A DNA stretch of 51,354 bases from Lachnospiraceae bacterium (GTDB taxonomy: Bacteria > Bacillota > Clostridia > Lachnospirales > Lachnospiraceae): the NCBI GenBank assembly GCA_017551665.1, contig JAFZLB010000091.1, positions 1-51,354 of the forward strand, read 5' to 3'. The translations under genes were made by a program, and so were the position numbers. This document shows positions 3,571 through 51,354 of the stretch, piece by piece; the stretch's first letter is position 1; every line of letters starts with the position of its first letter. The notes under the pieces are model-generated. The model was not told the DNA's origin. It searched no databases and was given only the letters and a program-made list of their open reading frames with translations.

Positions 3571-6480
3571 TTATCCGCCTTCTTCTCCGCCGCCCGCGTT
3601 CGGATCAGGTTCCGGCTGCGGTTGCGGCTGCGGCTCAGGCTGCGGCTGCGCGTTCGGATCCGGCTGTGCGTTCGGATCCGGCTGTGCGTTGGGATCCGGT
3701 TGCGCGTTGGGATCCGCGTTCGGATCCGGCTGCTCCGCCGCCGTATCCCGGAACAGATTGAAGACCGTTCCCGTTTCCTGGAAGCGCTGGAAGGCAACCG
3801 CGGCCAGGGTCTGTGCCTGGTTGCGCGCCGTCTCGTCATCGGCCCCCGCTTCCTTGAAATAATTATAGGCCTGCTGGTACAGCGTCTGCGGGGATTCCGG
3901 CAGCGTCCAGAAGGAAGCGTCGTGATTGCACTTTTTACGCACAATCTGCTGCTGCCCGTTTTCATCCACGATCATTTCCGTCTCCGCGCCCGCCACATCC
4001 GTGCGGTTGCCGGCCTGGGAGCCCCTGGCCACCTGATCCGGCTCAATCGGCGGCAGAACGGAAACCTCGTCCACGGCAAAGGGACAGTGCGTATTCGCCT
4101 GCAGCTTTGTGGCGCGGCAGATGCTGCCGTTGAAATGCTGGTCACAGCTCTCCGTCGGCACCGTGCCGATCGCAAAAAGTTCCGTGCGCACATGCCCGTC
4201 GCAGAGTCCGCCGACCGGCAGCTTTCCGGAAACGCCGCAGACCGCGGCCGACGTCAGTCCTTCCGCGGGCGGAATGAAATTGAGATACTCCTTGCCCTCA
4301 TGCACCTGCCCCATGATCTTGCCCCAGAGCTTTGTGGCCATCTGGGTATTCGGGAGCACTTCGTTATTATCATAACCCACCCACACCGTGCAGGTGTAAT
4401 ATCTCGTGTAGCCGGAGAACCAGCTGTCCCTGTCGTCCGATGTCGTGCCGGTCTTTCCGGCGATGGCCGTCGTACCGAAATTGGCGTTCAAACCGTTGCC
4501 CCAGCCCACGACATCCTGCATGGCGCTGGTCAGAAGGTATGCCGTTGTTTCCTTTAAGACACGGCGCGTCTCCTGATTCTGCGTTTTGTCGATCAGGACG
4601 TTGCCCTGATTGTCCACGACCTTGGTGTAATACGTCGGCTTCACGTAGACGCCGCCGTTGGCAATCGTGGCGTAGGCCGCGTTCAGCTCCACGTTTTTCA
4701 CGCCGTGCGTCAGGCCGCCGAGCGCCATGGACTGCGTGACGTCGGAATAAATCTCGTCCCCGACACGGAGGGATTCCACCAGCGTCGTGAAGCCGAAGCG
4801 CTGCAAATACTCATAGCCCAGCTGCGGCGAAATCCAGGTCAGCGTCTTCACCGTGACCACATTCGCGGAGTCCTTGATGGCGTTCCGGAGCGAATACATC
4901 CCCCGGTACTCCTGCCCCCACCAGTTGCGGACCAGGCGTCCGTTGTCATAGGCGTAAGGCGCGTCGTTGATCGTCGTCGCGAGGCTCATGCCGTAATCAT
5001 CGAGCGCCGGCGCGTAGGTGCTGACCACCTTGAAGGTGGAACCGGGCTGTCTTGTGGTGTCACTGGCGCGGTTCAGGGTACGGGAAGCCTCCTTGGGCCC
5101 GCGTCCGCCCACCATCGCCACCACATGTCCGTTCGTCTGGTCACTGATGACAACGGAGGTCTGGGGCTGCAGCGTCAGCGAGATGCGTTCGTCGAAGACC
5201 CTGTCCCCTTCCTGCAGCACGGCTTCCTTATACTGCTCCACCGCGGCATAGGCATCCTCTTCCGTATTATAAAGACGGTTGTAATTGACATTGAACTGCT
5301 TGAAATAGGTTTCCAGCATTTCCTGGGAGTGATTCTCCAGCGTGCCGTCCGCCTTTTCGATCGTCAGGGCGTAGGACAACAGCACCAGGGTATAGGGCGG
5401 ATAGTTTTCCGGATCCGCCACGATCTCGTCCGCGATGCGCTGGATGCGCGGGTCCTGGGTCGAATAAATCTTCAGGCCGCTGGAATACATCAGCGTGAAG
5501 GCCTGGGTTTCGTTGTAACCCAGTTCCATCAGGTCTTCCTTGAGCTGCACGGTCAACGCGTCCACGAAATAACTCGTGACGTCGGAACCCTCCTGCTCCG
5601 AGTTGACCAGCTGGATGCGGGAATACACGTCATCCGCCTTGGCCGCGTCGTATTCCTCCTGGGTGATCATGCCCTGGTCCTTCATATTGCCGAGCACGCG
5701 GTTGCGGCGCTTCTCGTTTTCCTCCGGATAAGAGATCGGGTTATAGCCGGAAGGATTCTGCGTAATTCCGGCGATGCAGGCACATTCCGAAAGGGAAAGC
5801 TCCGAAACGGATTTGCCGAAGTACCGGAGAGAGGCGGCCTGCACGCCCAGCGTGTTCTGGCCAAGGTTGATCGTGTTCATGTAATTCAGCAGGATGTCAT
5901 CCTTCGACATGTGCTTTTCCAACTCGATCGCGAGGAACTGCTCCTGGAATTTGCGCTTCCACTTGGCAAAGCCCGTCTGCCCGATCCAGTCCGTAAAGAC
6001 GTTGTTTTTGAGCAGCTGCTGCGTGATCGTGGAAGCACCCTGCGAGAAATCGCCGCTGCGGATGCCCTCCACGCCGGCACGCATGATACCGTAGATATCA
6101 ATGCCGTTGTGCGTGTAAAAGCGCTCGTCCTCAATGGCGACAAAGGCGTTCTTCAGATTCTTGGGAATCATGTCCCATGTCACGGGAATGCGGTTGGAAT
6201 CCTGGGACACGAGCTTCGCGATCTGATTGCCGTCCGCGTCATAGACAAAGGTAGAGTATCCGCGCGGCGTCACGGTGATGCCGGTGATGTCCGGCGCCGA
6301 AGACAACACGCCCCGGAAGGCGCCGATCCCGGCCGCGAGACCGATGGCGATGACGGCCACGGCGGCGATGATGACCACATGAAACACCAGCACGGTGATC
6401 TTGTGGTACAGCTTCTCCGTGTGGCTCAGCAATGCTCTTTCCTGTTTTCTGATTCCTCTTCTTGTGAAGTCCATGTCCAT
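3571..6480 (-). CDS. Class A penicillin-binding protein (transglycosylase/transpeptidase)
   Basis: A 969-residue bifunctional peptidoglycan synthase. There is a cytoplasmic N-terminus and one membrane segment (about residues 28-52). The GT51 transglycosylase domain carries EDERFYTHNG (117-126, catalytic Glu) and GASTITQQL (148-156). The transpeptidase has S481-TF-K484, SAN (538-540) and KTG (676-678), all intact. A Cys-containing segment follows, and the last ~60 residues are Pro/Asp/Asn/Gln-rich repeats of DPNAQP type, probably wall-spanning. Two start codons (6480 and 6474) are possible, neither with a good Shine-Dalgarno. A roughly 130-nt structured leader precedes the gene. Confidence 0.95.
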   Translation of the reverse strand: MDMDFTRRGIRKQERALLSHTEKLYHKITVLVFHVVIIAAVAVIAIGLAAGIGAFRGVLSSAPDITGITVTPRGYSTFVYDADGNQIAKLVSQDSNRIPVTWDMIPKNLKNAFVAIEDERFYTHNGIDIYGIMRAGVEGIRSGDFSQGASTITQQLLKNNVFTDWIGQTGFAKWKRKFQEQFLAIELEKHMSKDDILLNYMNTINLGQNTLGVQAASLRYFGKSVSELSLSECACIAGITQNPSGYNPISYPEENEKRRNRVLGNMKDQGMITQEEYDAAKADDVYSRIQLVNSEQEGSDVTSYFVDALTVQLKEDLMELGYNETQAFTLMYSSGLKIYSTQDPRIQRIADEIVADPENYPPYTLVLLSYALTIEKADGTLENHSQEMLETYFKQFNVNYNRLYNTEEDAYAAVEQYKEAVLQEGDRVFDERISLTLQPQTSVVISDQTNGHVVAMVGGRGPKEASRTLNRASDTTRQPGSTFKVVSTYAPALDDYGMSLATTINDAPYAYDNGRLVRNWWGQEYRGMYSLRNAIKDSANVVTVKTLTWISPQLGYEYLQRFGFTTLVESLRVGDEIYSDVTQSMALGGLTHGVKNVELNAAYATIANGGVYVKPTYYTKVVDNQGNVLIDKTQNQETRRVLKETTAYLLTSAMQDVVGWGNGLNANFGTTAIAGKTGTTSDDRDSWFSGYTRYYTCTVWVGYDNNEVLPNTQMATKLWGKIMGQVHEGKEYLNFIPPAEGLTSAAVCGVSGKLPVGGLCDGHVRTELFAIGTVPTESCDQHFNGSICRATKLQANTHCPFAVDEVSVLPPIEPDQVARGSQAGNRTDVAGAETEMIVDENGQQQIVRKKCNHDASFWTLPESPQTLYQQAYNYFKEAGADDETARNQAQTLAAVAFQRFQETGTVFNLFRDTAAEQPDPNADPNAQPDPNAQPDPNAQPDPNAQPQPEPQPQPQPEPDPNAGGGEEGG
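3646..3730. repeat. 18-nt tandem repeats in the PBP tail
   Basis: Tandem 18-nt units built on GGATCCGGCTGTGCGTTC (plus strand) encode the DPNAQP repeats at the PBP C-terminus. The units are nearly identical at the DNA level, so copy number probably varies between strains. Confidence 0.8.
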
Positions 6481-6490
6481 TTAGCTTCAA

Positions 6491-8307
<1,817 letters not shown>

Positions 8308-37542: not shown

Positions 37543-37571
37543 ATTATAAATGATGGAAGGGAAATGGTAAA
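37543..37571 (-). promoter_or_regulatory. Promoter of dinB, predicted leaderless
   Basis: On the minus strand, TTTACC (plus 37566-37571), 17 nt and a perfect TATAAT (plus 37543-37548). Seven bases separate the -10 from the dinB ATG, so the first transcribed base should be at or next to the start codon. The -35 lies in the closing stem of a cloverleaf element. Confidence 0.65.
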
Positions 37572-37702
37572 GCGGTGCAAAAACTCGAAAACGCTGCGCG
37601 TTTCCTCGTTGCGCTTGTGCGCGCTATACGTATGCAAAAAAACAAGCGGCCTTGCAAGCGAGCTTGCCGGCCGCGTGTTTTTTGCATACGTGCACCGCTT
37701 TA
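37568..37702 (+). repeat. Cloverleaf-type spacer element, copy 2 (rplL-dinB)
   Basis: TAAAGCGGTGCA/TGCACCGCTTTA (12 bp, perfect) close a 135-nt segment. Hairpin 1 is AAACGC-TGC-GCGTTT, flanked by CTCG; hairpin 2 is GCGC-TTGT-GCGC. The third arm is CGTATGCAAAAAA/TTTTTTGCATACG enclosing the rplL terminator. The closing stem includes the rplL stop codon and overlaps the dinB -35. Confidence 0.6.
37646..37674 (-). terminator. Terminator of the rplJ-rplL operon
   Basis: GCGGCC..GGCCGC with inner GCAAG-CGAG-CTTGC. On the minus strand it is followed by TTGTTTTTTT, 26 nt past the rplL stop. It forms the tip of the third arm of the cloverleaf element. Confidence 0.8.
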
Positions 37703-38077
37703 CTTTAACGTCACTTTGGCTCCCTCGGCTTCCACCTTGGTCTTGATTTCCTCGGCCTCTGCCTTCGGCACGCCTTCCTTGATCATCTTCGGTGCGCCTT
37801 CGACGAGGTCCTTGGACTCCTTCAGGCCCAAGCCGGTGATCTCGCGGACCACCTTGATGACCTTGACCTTGTTCGGGCCGACATCCGTCAGCTCGACATC
37901 GAAGTCTGTCTTCTCTTCCGCAGCCTCACCGCCGCCGGCGCCTGCCGCTGCCACGACGACACCCGCCGCTGCGGACACGCCGAACTCTTCTTCACAAGCC
38001 TTTACCAGTTCATTTAATTCCATGACGGATAACTCTTTAATCACGTCAATGATTTCCGCTGTGCTCATCTTAGCCAT
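37700..38077 (-). CDS. rplL: 50S ribosomal protein L7/L12
   Basis: A 125-residue stalk protein. The N-terminal dimerisation helices ([20 protein letters not shown]) are followed by an Ala/Gly hinge and the C-terminal factor-binding domain ([20 protein letters not shown]). It binds L10 in several copies and recruits elongation factors. GAAAGGAG precedes the ATG. It follows rplJ in the usual order, and a terminator ends the operon. Confidence 0.98.
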
Positions 38078-38168: not shown

Positions 38169-38936
38169 TCAGCCTTCGCTTTCGCTCGGCTTCTCCTCGG
38201 AACTTTCGGCCTCCGCAGCAGGTGCTTCCTCGGCCGCCGGTGCCGCTTCTTCCGCCTTCACTTCCGCAGCAGGTGCTTCCTCGGCCGCCGGTGCGGCTTC
38301 TTCCGCCTTCACTTCTTCGGCTGCCGGTGCTTCGGCTGCGGGTGCTTCTTCAGCAGGCGCTTCCGCTGCGGGAGCTTCCTCTGCCGGTGCGGCTTCCTCT
38401 GCCGGTGCCGCTTCTTCGGCTGCCTCCGCCTTCGGTGCGGGCTCTACGCCGCTTTCCTTCTGCTCCGCGATCTGCTTCACGACGCGCGCGAAGTTCGCGA
38501 TCGGGGACTGGATGGAGCCGAGCAGCTTGGAGAGCAGTTCGTCTCTGGACGGGATCAGCGCGATTTCCTTGAGCGCGTCCGCGTCATAGAATTTGCCTAC
38601 GACCACGCCGCCCTTCAGTTCCAGGGCCGGATTGGTCTTGGCGAACTTCATCAGCACGCGTGCCGGTGCCGCGGGATCTTCCAGGGACACGGCCAGTGCG
38701 GACGGACCGTTCAGCAGATCATCCAGCTGTGCGAAATCCGTTCCCTCAAACGCGCGGCGCATCATTGTGTTCTTGTAGATCTTATAGAACACGTTCCCCG
38801 CACGAAGGTCACGGCGCAGCTGCGTGTCCTGCGCGACGGTCAGACCTCTCGCGTCCGCGAGAACCACTGCCTGCGCGTCCTTGACATGCTCTGCGATTTC
38901 CTGCACGATGGGTTGTTTTAACTCAACCTTTGCCAT
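38169..38936 (-). CDS. rplJ: 50S ribosomal protein L10 with a long Ala/Glu/Pro tail
   Basis: A 255-residue L10. The first ~170 residues form a normal L10 (VVLADARGLTVAQDTQLRRD, NVFYKIYKNTMMRRA) and end with the helix that carries L7/L12. A further ~85 residues are almost only Ala, Glu and Pro with repeats of EEAPAAE type and a few Lys. Bacterial L10 usually stops near 165-175 residues. ATG 38936 has AAAGGAG 8 nt upstream. Expression should be controlled by the L10 leader RNA upstream. Confidence 0.96.
   Translation of the reverse strand: MAKVELKQPIVQEIAEHVKDAQAVVLADARGLTVAQDTQLRRDLRAGNVFYKIYKNTMMRRAFEGTDFAQLDDLLNGPSALAVSLEDPAAPARVLMKFAKTNPALELKGGVVVGKFYDADALKEIALIPSRDELLSKLLGSIQSPIANFARVVKQIAEQKESGVEPAPKAEAAEEAAPAEEAAPAEEAPAAEAPAEEAPAAEAPAAEEVKAEEAAPAAEEAPAAEVKAEEAAPAAEEAPAAEAESSEEKPSESEG
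38215..38420. repeat. Repeats encoding the L10 acidic tail
   Basis: A unit containing CTTCCGCAGCAGGTGCTTCC followed by TCGGCCGCCGGTGC is present twice nearly unchanged, with degenerate shorter copies after it. They encode the Ala/Glu/Pro repeats of the rplJ tail. Confidence 0.75.
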
Positions 38937-38965: not shown

Positions 38966-39101
38966 GTGAGCCACGTGACAAGCTCGAAAACACGTTGTGT
39001 TTTCTCGCTGTCACGGCGTTCGCCGTATGCATCCGCGGTGATGCACACGCTCTTGTAAGCAGGCTTCCACGCGGTGCATCCCGCGTCTGCGCATGGCTCA
39101 C
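38966..39101 (+). repeat. Cloverleaf-type spacer element, copy 3 (rplJ leader)
   Basis: GTGAGCC/GGCTCAC close 136 nt. Hairpin 1 is GAAAACAC-GTT-GTGTTTTC, extended by GTGACA/TGTCAC. Hairpin 2 is CGGC-GTTC-GCCG. The third arm is GATGCAC/GTGCATC. It is inserted between the L10 leader attenuator and the rplJ ribosome binding site, antisense to the gene. Confidence 0.6.
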
Positions 39102-39107
39102 TTTACG

Positions 39108-39255
39108 CGCAAAAGAAAGCCCCCTTTTGCCAATGACAATCGGAGGCTTTAGCATACAAAGAAAGCTGTATTCCTCACCTCGGCTGGCGGGACTCCTGTC
39201 CGCTTACGACCTTCCGGTCACCTGCTGTCTTCGGCCTGCGCGGATATTACGCGCA
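39108..39255 (-). promoter_or_regulatory. L10 leader RNA with attenuator
   Basis: The minus-strand transcript contains the L10-leader hallmark CCGAAGACAGCAGGTG and the partner GCCAGCCGAGGTGAGG, which form the kink-turn-like L10(L12)4 binding site. A terminator follows: AAAGCCTCC (plus 39142-39150) with GGGGGCTTT (plus 39116-39124), then CTTTT. When L10-L12 is in excess, binding should favour termination before rplJ. Confidence 0.85.
39116..39150 (-). terminator. Attenuator terminator in the L10 leader
   Basis: On the minus strand AAAGCCTCC pairs with GGGGGCTTT (one G-T pair) and is followed by CTTTT. It lies immediately downstream of the L10 binding site and about 180 nt before rplJ. Confidence 0.75.
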
Positions 39256-49066: not shown

Positions 49067-50212
49067 TTATTCTCCGGAAATCTGCTGCCAGGCGTACGCC
49101 TTAATCACCTTTGCCCAGTCGTTGTAAACCTTGAAGTGCACATGCACATACTTATCCGAGGAAAGCTCCGGCTTCATAAAGTTACCGTCCCCCTTGGAGG
49201 TCGCGGCGATGTCGACAAAGCCCCAGCCGTTCTCCGCCGCCATCTGCTGCAGACGGCTGTTATAGTACGCGATATTGTCCCCGTTCAGACCGCCCTTTTT
49301 GATCCCCGGATAAGGGTAGGTGGCGCTCATCACAATGATGCGGACGCCGGGCACCGCGCCCTGGATTCTTCCGATCAGCGTCTTGTACTTCGTGATCAGG
49401 TCATCCACCGGCGTGTAGCTGATGTCGTTGATGCCCAGGAAGAGGAAGACCGTATTCGCCCGCAGCGTGGACGCGACGTTCCAGGGCGGAATGCGCTGTC
49501 CGCGGAAGGGCGGATGCATGCCGCCGTTCGTTTCCCTTAAGGCGTGCACCAGGGCATAGCTCGGCGCCGCCTGGAAGTGGAAGGATTTCAACAAAGAATC
49601 ACTGCTGCCGGAACAGACCATGCCAAAGCCGGACATGACGGAATCCCCCACAAACAGCGTCGTGCCGTAATAGTTTTTGATCAGCTGCAGTTCCTCTGCC
49701 GAATACTCCCTGCTGTTCCAGTACGCAGGCAGCGGCGAGGCTTCCACAAAGGACTTTGCCTTCTCCGCGTGAATCTGGTTGTTCGCCACGGTGCCGACAT
49801 AGGCCGCACGGCCCTCCGAAGCACCGAAATCCACAAAATGACGCCAGAGCGCACTGCGGTTATAACCGAAGGCACGCTTCAGATCCGCGTATTCATCCGC
49901 GTAACGGCGGTAATCAAAATTGGACTTGTTCAAGCCTGTCTGGGCACCGGAAATCGTCCCGCGGGAACCGTTCGTCAGATAGACCGTGCGGCCTTCCGCA
50001 AAGCCCGAATCCAAGTAATGATTCCAGAGCTGCTTCTGGTTATAGCCGAAGGTCTGTTTCAGATCATCGTAATCATCCGCGTAACGCCGGTAATCAAAGG
50101 TTTCGTAGGTCACACCGGGCGGCGGTGCCGCCTGTGCGCGCAGCGAAAAAGATCCGCAAAGCAGAATGAATATCATGCAAAACAACAGCATTTTTTGTGA
50201 CTTATTCTTCAT
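49067..50212 (-). CDS. Secreted SGNH hydrolase with two N-terminal repeats
   Basis: A 381-residue protein with a signal peptide (about 1-28, ending AQAA). Two 38-residue repeats (FDYRRYADDYDDLKQTFGYN and FDYRRYADEYADLKRAFGYN) each end HY/HF..G..EGR; such repeats occur on clostridial surface proteins. The SGNH/GDSL hydrolase part has FVGDSVMSGFG (nucleophile Ser), FLFLGINDISY (Asn) and a late DKYVHVHFKVY (His). It may deacylate a glycan or lipid; the substrate is unknown. AAAAGGGGGA precedes the ATG. It is the first gene of the operon leading to rel. Confidence 0.9.
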   Translation of the reverse strand: MKNKSQKMLLFCMIFILLCGSFSLRAQAAPPPGVTYETFDYRRYADDYDDLKQTFGYNQKQLWNHYLDSGFAEGRTVYLTNGSRGTISGAQTGLNKSNFDYRRYADEYADLKRAFGYNRSALWRHFVDFGASEGRAAYVGTVANNQIHAEKAKSFVEASPLPAYWNSREYSAEELQLIKNYYGTTLFVGDSVMSGFGMVCSGSSDSLLKSFHFQAAPSYALVHALRETNGGMHPPFRGQRIPPWNVASTLRANTVFLFLGINDISYTPVDDLITKYKTLIGRIQGAVPGVRIIVMSATYPYPGIKKGGLNGDNIAYYNSRLQQMAAENGWGFVDIAATSKGDGNFMKPELSSDKYVHVHFKVYNDWAKVIKAYAWQQISGE

Positions 50213-50298: not shown

Positions 50299-50428
50299 GC
50301 CGTGCGATCGTCGGAAATCGCTGCGCGATCTCCGACTACGCGGGCGTTCGCCCTATGAAATAGCACAAACGAAAACCGGGAAGGATGCGAGCACCCTTCC
50401 CGGTATTGTTTGCGCTATTTCGCACGGC
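50299..50428 (+). repeat. Cloverleaf-type spacer element, copy 4 (tuf-SGNH)
   Basis: GCCGTGCG/CGCACGGC close 130 nt. Hairpin 1 is GTCGGA/TCCGAC with ATCGC-TGC-GCGAT; hairpin 2 is GGGC-GTTC-GCCC. The third arm starts GAAATAGC/GCTATTTC and carries the tuf terminator at its tip. It fills most of the 232-nt spacer between tuf and the SGNH hydrolase gene. Confidence 0.6.
50375..50404 (-). terminator. Terminator of tuf
   Basis: ACCGGGAAGG (50375-50384) pairs with CCTTCCCGGT (50395-50404). On the minus strand TTTTCG follows. The stem is prolonged outward by GTTTG/CAAAC and GCTATTTC/GAAATAGC. Confidence 0.75.

Positions 50429-50444: not shown

Positions 50445-51354
<910 letters not shown>

What the first reader, a model, noticed from the sequence alone, without database searches (positions are those of the whole stretch)
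37568..37702. A family of ~130-nt cloverleaf-shaped spacer elements (four copies)
Seen in sequence: four gene-free spacers (6491-6613 on -, 37568-37702, 38966-39101 and 50299-50428 on +) share one architecture. A 7-12 bp closing stem is followed by hairpin 1 (in three copies flanked by CTCG), a 4-5 bp hairpin 2 with a TTGC, TTGT or GTTC loop, the bases TATR, then a long third arm. All arms pair well although the bases differ strongly between copies, so shape rather than sequence seems to be kept. Two copies carry the terminator of the neighbouring gene (rplL, tuf) in arm 3, and two lie in leaders (PBP, rplJ). They may be structured mobile repeats, REP-like elements or RNA regulators. I know of no described class they match.
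Basis: partly seen in the sequence, partly recalled or inferred. Interest (0 to 1): 0.78.

Follow-up and report, generated by a model that had tools for sequence, protein, structure and literature searches.

The report
Roaming cloverleaf RNA repeats, Clostridiales-1 kin
Four spacers in this rumen bacterium's DNA hold copies of a scattered, cloverleaf-folding RNA element, a short cousin of an RNA family of unknown role called Clostridiales-1, that often sits just behind genes and may act at the ends of their messages.

Summary
All four copies fold as described. A model built without copy 2 recovers it (39.6 bits, E 9e-13). Matches occur in 37 of 37 genomes searched of its genus, apparently Butyrivibrio. 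Pairing is kept by compensatory change: 24 of 29 pairs, 241 cells against 73.5 shuffled and at most 62 slid.

Three corrections. (1) The working strand is the opposite one: closing stem, long terminator-like arm, small hairpin, arm with CGAG facing CGAG; wobble asymmetry supports this. (2) A described relative exists. In 7 of 41 loci tried, copy 1 among them, a copy matches Rfam RF01699 (Clostridiales-1) full length on that strand, at 28-41 bits against a threshold of 48: a short, divergent branch of that kind. (3) Spread is supported: near-identical copies in differing flanks; a copy between carA and carB that a 94-95% identical relative lacks. No Y1/RAYT link was found.

A sense frame ends within 60 nt of 39 of 84 copies, a converging one at 18. 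Likely role, inferred: 3'-end termination and protection. What moves them is unknown.

The parts
6491..6613 (+). Copy e1 (RNA strand +), between divergent genes: penicillin-binding protein (3571-6480 -) and an FGGY kinase (6694-8307 +). RF01699 match 32.0 bits at 6492-6612 +
   Evidence: (R2 85.5 bits; e1 was in R2's training set)
37567..37703 (-). Copy e2 (RNA strand -): 3' end of rplL (37700-38077 -); long arm with GC stem and T7 (by eye); next gene on the same strand is an IMS (dinB-type) polymerase
   Evidence: held out of model R1, 39.6 bits; R2 88.7 bits, in its training set
38966..39101 (-). Copy e3 (RNA strand -): between the sub-threshold L10-leader match (39104-39252 -) and rplJ (38169-38936 -)
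   Evidence: (R2 100 bits, in its training set)
50299..50428 (-). Copy e4 (RNA strand -): 3' side of tuf (50445-51341 -); terminator-like long arm; next gene on the same strand is a GDSL hydrolase (49067-50212 -)
   Evidence: (R2 78.3 bits, in its training set)
50375..50404 (-). Terminator-like hairpin with TTTCGTTT tail inside the long arm (P2) of e4
   Evidence: 1 found, 0.8 expected in shuffles
39104..39252 (-). L10 leader of the rplJL operon (37.7 bits, below its 44-bit threshold), directly upstream of e3 on the same strand
   Evidence: L034:1624-1772 -

Best explanation
The four spacers are members of a dispersed family of ~130-nt structured RNA modules in Butyrivibrio and other Lachnospiraceae, a short divergent branch of the Clostridiales-1 (RF01699) kind. 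Read on the working strand a module is: P1 (closing stem), P2 (long variable arm ending in a CUUG-type loop, in about a third of copies with a U-run), P3 (GGCGAA-GCC hairpin), P4 (arm interrupted by CGAG facing CGAG, which can form tandem G.A pairs), P1'. Shown: the structure and its compensatory evolution; the strand bias of wobble pairs; an excess of sense frames ending at the copies; near-identical copies at different sites and presence/absence between sister species; resemblance to Clostridiales-1. Inferred: many copies act in cis at message ends, P2 as terminator and the folded module as a barrier to 3' exonucleases, or, where transcription reads through (carA-carB, rplJ leader, before 16S rRNA), as an autonomously folding insert that neighbouring RNA tolerates. 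They spread like MITE passengers; what moves them is unidentified.
For: Held-out recovery of e2. R1 matches at E <= 0.1 in 37 of 37 genus genomes and 8 of 24 genomes of other families of the order. Compensation: 24 of 29 pairs and 241 cells with changes on both sides, shuffled mean 73.5 (sd 7.0), slid structures at most 62; six helices, 0 of 2000 permutations each. Context: of 84 copies with a clear P1, 39 have a sense frame (>=100 codons, stop to stop) ending within 60 nt of the RNA 5' end, 33 of the 42 distances between -4 and +18, against 18 with a frame converging from the other side. Of 115 copies the gene called on that side within 250 nt points toward the copy in 60 cases, away in 25. 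Canonical Clostridiales-1: a stop within 30 nt at 10 of 15 loci. Dispersal: in G064, 40 of 120 pairs of copies are >=90% identical, with downstream flanks at 0.47-0.63 identity. carA-carB: copy in G033 and G003, not in G001, G090, G093, G018, G026. Kinship: RF01699 full-length matches on the working strand in 7 of 41 loci, 28.5-41.1 bits.
Against: No transcript data. A run of >=5 U lies in the long arm on the working strand in only 35 of 114 copies, on the other strand in 28. P1 and hp2 show no wobble asymmetry (19 G.T / 23 A.C and 13 / 11). 25 of 115 copies overlap a frame of >=120 aa by over 60 nt in the crude gene calls, and the frames are not checked genes: the one counted for e1 lies antisense to a real gene. 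e1 and L126 stand opposite to the gene beside them, just behind TATAAT-like sequence. RF01699's threshold was not reached in the loci tried, and 34 of 41 gave no RF01699 match at the cut-off used. No clear target-site duplication at carA-carB: 23 nt in G001 stand against ~155 nt in G033, so gene conversion or loss is possible. In G064 the upstream flank could be compared in 21 of the 40 near-identical pairs: 2 share it (0.97-0.98) and 4 partly (0.67-0.70), so some copies lie in larger repeats. No transposase partner was found.
Confidence: 0.66

Rival explanations
1. Ordinary MITE: a DNA passenger whose inverted ends (P1) are moved by a DDE or other transposase; the folds and the sense bias are by-products of terminators being tolerated only behind genes.
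For: Inverted ends, near-identical copies in G064, presence/absence at carA-carB, copies at gene ends, tandem and nested copies.
Against: Inner arms and not only the ends covary. Wobble asymmetry picks one strand. Copies in sense inside RNase P RNA of two genomes. No clear target-site duplication; transposases other than Y1 were not tested.
Confidence: 0.3
2. REP-like element moved by a Y1/RAYT (TnpA_REP) transposase through single-stranded DNA hairpins.
For: Hairpins with conserved flanks; stop-codon-proximal places as in enterobacterial REPs (recalled).
Against: PF01797 is absent from 9 of 37 genus genomes: the own genome (16 copies) and eight others, among them G023 with 13 copies (several of these genomes are incomplete). 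Also absent from G061 (16 copies) and G067 (14). In 55 loci around Y1 genes the best R1 match has 13.7 bits.
Confidence: 0.05
3. Trans-acting sRNA family, as Rfam types Clostridiales-1 (sRNA).
For: RF01699 is typed sRNA; the 2010 table says probably RNA, not cis-regulatory. P2 could end an independent transcript.
Against: Copies lie at stop codons, in an operon junction or inside another RNA; stems diverge freely. Promoters were scanned for only two stretches of the window, so independent transcription is not excluded.
Confidence: 0.12
4. Fast-evolving terminators that look alike by convergence, not one family.
For: The long arm sometimes is terminator-like; sequences differ strongly.
Against: Conserved islands, near-constant place of P1', held-out recovery, reach across the genus.
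Confidence: 0.02

Closest known systems
Clostridiales-1 RNA (Rfam RF01699; Weinberg et al. 2010, PMC2864571, passages seen)
   Same: Closing stem, first long arm with CUUG loop, two further arms, last arm with a purine-rich internal loop; same strand; present in the same genomes; also at stop codons. At the rplL 3' end one relative has the RF01699 type (L365 = G026; L209 and L291 look alike by eye) where others carry this type.
   Different: About 130 against 166 nt; P3 shrunk to one short hairpin; P4 loop CGAG/CGAG instead of GGGAG/GGAG; 28-41 bits where matched, below the 48-bit threshold.
Pneumococcal BOX, RUP and SPRITE repeats (PMC3049150, passages seen)
   Same: Short, interspersed stem-loop repeats; BOX and RUP with paired ends, BOX with tandem inner modules and shown to be transcribed; SPRITE terminator-like near gene ends.
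   Different: Sequence kinship not tested; whether those repeats diverge with compensation was not looked at; a different order of bacteria.
ERIC and REP/BIME elements (recalled)
   Same: About 127-nt palindromic (ERIC) or gene-end (REP) repeats.
   Different: Enterobacterial; REP goes with RAYT, no link seen here.

Membership tests
Clostridiales-1 RNA (RF01699) | Score at or above the curated 48 bits | tested here: not met
   Not reached by a copy in the window or in the 41 loci; best 41.1 (L317), e1 32.0; e2, e3, e4 gave no RF01699 match up to E 10
Clostridiales-1 RNA (RF01699) | Closing stem, long first arm with CUUG-type loop, two further arms, on one strand | tested here: met
Clostridiales-1 RNA (RF01699) | Reciprocal detection by a model of the new family | tested here: inconclusive
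   Model R2 hits 7 of 15 canonical loci at the right place and strand, one or two of them only in part, at E 0.004 to 0.52
Clostridiales-1 RNA (RF01699) | Long second arm with internal loops (AUGAG..AAG / GCGGA..CGAA) | tested here: not met
   P3 is a short hairpin
MITE | Terminal inverted repeats and dispersal | tested here: met
MITE | Target-site duplication | tested here: inconclusive
   None clear at the one filled/empty pair examined, carA-carB
MITE | Ends shared with an autonomous transposon | not tested
   Only Y1 transposase neighbourhoods were examined
REP | Associated RAYT/Y1 transposase | tested here: not met
BOX | boxA-boxB(n)-boxC sequence modules | not tested
   Only architecture compared, from PMC3049150 passages

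The most novel reading that the evidence does not exclude
Clostridiales-1 and this short branch form one superfamily of mobile RNA modules that spread as RNA-shaped units: they settle, sense strand, where a transcript tolerates a self-contained fold (behind stop codons and terminators, between cistrons, before rRNA, even in what looks like the P12 arm of RNase P RNA), and the conserved CUUG-type loop and CGAG/CGAG motif are the handle of a dedicated RNA-binding or RNA-based mobility protein.
Probability: 0.2. Interest if true: 0.85.

Novelty: new variant of a known kind. Interest (0 to 1): 0.62.

Why it matters
Clostridiales-1 has been a candidate RNA since 2010, and the passages I saw of that paper give it no role. 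These data suggest what kind of thing it is: a dispersed module, often sense and at message ends. They add a short branch found in all 37 genus genomes searched and name a site where sister species differ by one copy. The insertions inside RNase P RNA and between carA and carB are natural experiments on how mobile RNA folds are tolerated.

Tried and rejected
A strict core pattern gave no match in the own genome. A Y1/RAYT partner was rejected for lack of linkage. A transposase was sought by eye in the frames of two short contig ends with copies (L173, L182): none recognised. Sub-threshold Rfam matches to microRNA families were set aside as long-hairpin noise. Searches over more than 40 genomes use stricter filters, so their copy counts are lower bounds (one search gives 16 for the own genome at E <= 0.1, one search gives 19 at that cut-off). 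Literature, judged from listings and abstract starts only: for a described Lachnospiraceae or Butyrivibrio repeat of this type and for RNase P P12 insertions showed none that fits; searches list 2 and 5 papers holding Clostridiales-1 RNA, or Clostridiales-1 or RF01699, of which I saw passages of one (PMC2864571). Of PMC3049150 I saw passages. Supplements could not be read.

Rows dropped: R1 was run for alignment on 124 of the 258 sources then held (257 loci and the window), chosen by me to leave out duplicates and pattern-only loci (for instance L167 and L168, whose shown flanks are alike on both sides, were not given) -> 158 hits -> 115 less than 90% alike -> 113 with enough flank -> 84 with a P1 score of at least 16 -> 40 chosen by me for alignment A6. 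P1 pairing in A6 is therefore favoured by selection. The structure was predicted from A6 itself, which by itself favours it over the slid versions. One search was given 19 of the 20 loci.

Full report
Check of the observation. The four spacers fold as claimed on both strands. From 9 copies without copy 2, a model of the hp1+hp2 core (R1) finds the held-out copy at 39.6 bits, E 9.3e-13 in the window, beside the other three; the next window match has 12.2 bits. In 61 genomes R1 matches at E <= 0.1 occur in 37 of 37 of the window's genus (own genome included) and in 8 of 24 genomes of other families of the order. The own genome has 16 matches at E <= 5e-4. An exact pattern in named genomes gave 58 stretches, all titled Butyrivibrio, Lachnospiraceae or Eubacterium. 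Contigs of genus genomes G003 and G018 have the lengths of titled Butyrivibrio contigs, so I infer that the genus is Butyrivibrio.

Is it more than chance? The closing stem and long arm were not in R1, so they are independent tests. In 113 non-redundant copies own flanks pair better than exchanged ones (21.5 against 15.7; 0 of 2000 permutations; own partner in the top 5% of its row in 37 of 113). Six helices taken one by one give 0 of 2000 each, with small margins for hp2 (12.98 against at most 11.85) and the base of the hp1 arm (11.88 against at most 11.60). In an alignment of 40 copies, 92.5% of cells pair (72.9% shuffled), 24 of 29 pairs have changes on both sides, and the covariation score is 0.547 against 0.187 shuffled and at most 0.150 slid. 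Limits: rows were chosen by me with a P1 criterion, the structure comes from the same alignment, and shuffles ignore relatedness.

Which strand works? A.C on this strand is G.U on the other, so pairing in two of four regions is kept as RNA (or single strand) on the other strand.

Context. Of 84 copies with a clear P1, 39 have a sense frame of at least 100 codons ending within 60 nt of the RNA 5' end, 33 of 42 distances between -4 and +18 nt; 18 have a frame converging from the other side. Frames were not checked as genes. With crude gene calls on 115 copies, the gene on that side within 250 nt points toward the copy in 60 cases and away in 25; on the other side 38 point away and 35 toward; 25 copies overlap a called frame. 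In the window e2 follows rplL, e4 follows tuf, e3 lies between the L10-leader match and rplJ, all sense; e1 lies between divergent genes, antisense to the penicillin-binding protein and upstream of an FGGY kinase on its own strand. Other settings: between carA and carB (the carA frame of G033 ends inside the copy); between a tRNA and what reads by eye as the start of 16S rRNA in the own genome (L119); and inside the RNase P RNA match of G037 and G038, interrupted by a copy in sense that folds as its own cloverleaf. Calling that arm P12 is my reading of the alignment; relatives without the insert were not examined.

Terminator content. In fixed windows, a run of 5 or more U lies in the long arm on the working strand in 35 of 114 copies, on the other strand in 28, on both in 21. 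Termination is thus frequent but not a defining trait.

Mobility. In genome G064, 16 copies were compared: 40 of 120 pairs are at least 90% identical over core and long arm, three of them identical at the two decimals shown. Their downstream flanks are 0.47-0.63 identical. The upstream flank could be compared in 21 of the 40: 15 pairs at 0.43-0.56, 4 at 0.67-0.70, 2 at 0.97-0.98, so some copies lie in larger repeats. At carA-carB, G033 (flanks 94-95% identical to G001) and G003 carry a copy, while G001, G090, G093, G018 and G026 have a junction of about 23-32 nt. The rplL 3' end has a copy in G033, a plain terminator by eye in G001. R1 finds copies there in 5 of the 30 rplJ-rplL loci examined (of 50 genomes with a match), and R2 also in G033 and, weaker, G096. 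At the e3 place R1 found only the own copy in those 30; R2, run on nine rplJ-rplL loci besides the window, finds a 30.3-bit relative in L201. Copies at the rplL site keep pairing through changes (TTTGACGC/GCGTCAAA in L221 against TTTGGCGC/GCGCCAAA in L288). Tandem inner modules (L087/L178, L096, L180, L182, L187) and nested copies (L103, L105) occur. No Y1 transposase was found in the own genome, and no convincing copy in 55 loci around Y1 genes. Other transposase classes were not tested.

Known relatives. Rfam at its thresholds gives only a tRNA in the window. With permissive search, RF01699 Clostridiales-1 matches full length on the working strand in five of 19 loci (L317 41.1, L316 39.0, L320 38.8, L308 31.0, L319 28.5 bits), in two of 16 own-genome loci (L121 34.5, e1 32.0), and in one of 8 (L308 again): 7 of 41 loci in all; the threshold is 48. 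Canonical Clostridiales-1 has 36 matches in the own genome at E <= 0.1 and occurs in 37 of 37 genus genomes and 3 of 24 others at that cut-off, and in 0 of 14 control genomes. Compared by eye, the listed canonical places do not coincide with the listed R1 places; both lists are capped. Architecture and loop agree, and 10 of 15 canonical loci have a sense stop within 30 nt. Reciprocal detection by R2 is weak: 7 of 15 at E 0.004 to 0.52. I therefore call the new type a divergent branch or sister of Clostridiales-1, not a member by Rfam's rule. The 2010 paper's table calls Clostridiales-1 probably RNA, not cis-regulatory, not a switch, in Clostridiales and human gut (passages); the name occurs once in that main text, and I saw no role there.

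Verdict. The mechanism at message ends is inference; the means of spread is open.

Noticed in passing
L314 (G037) 736-854 and L327 (G038) 675-796: A copy sits in sense inside the RNase P RNA match, in what looks like the P12 arm, and folds as its own cloverleaf.
   Followed up: partly
window 39104-39252 -: L10 leader match (37.7 bits, below threshold) ends directly before copy e3; the sequence there looks like a terminator stem and T-run.
   Followed up: partly
own genome, e.g. G000:C72:5577-5753, G000:C81:19007-19176: 36 canonical Clostridiales-1 (RF01699) matches in the own genome at E <= 0.1, several above 100 bits; none in the window at Rfam's threshold.
   Followed up: partly
L119 around 1429-1564: A copy between a tRNA match and what reads by eye as the 5' end of 16S rRNA, sense, near the end of a contig.
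   Followed up: no
window 37543-37571 -: Promoter-like TTTACC-17-TATAAT overlaps the RNA 3' edge of copy e2, in front of the IMS (dinB-type) polymerase gene.
   Followed up: no
L178, L180, L182, L096, L187, L121: The core (P3-P4 half) is repeated two or three times in tandem (53-88 bp periods), recalling boxB arrays.
   Followed up: partly
L200, L214, L224, between rplJ and rplL: Another repeated hairpin-like stretch (GATGTTCCAT... type), twice in L200; not identified.
   Followed up: no
L171, L172, first 120 bases: Tandem units of about 54 bases containing GTCGGGGTAAATAGTG in genome G064, beside copies of the element.
   Followed up: no
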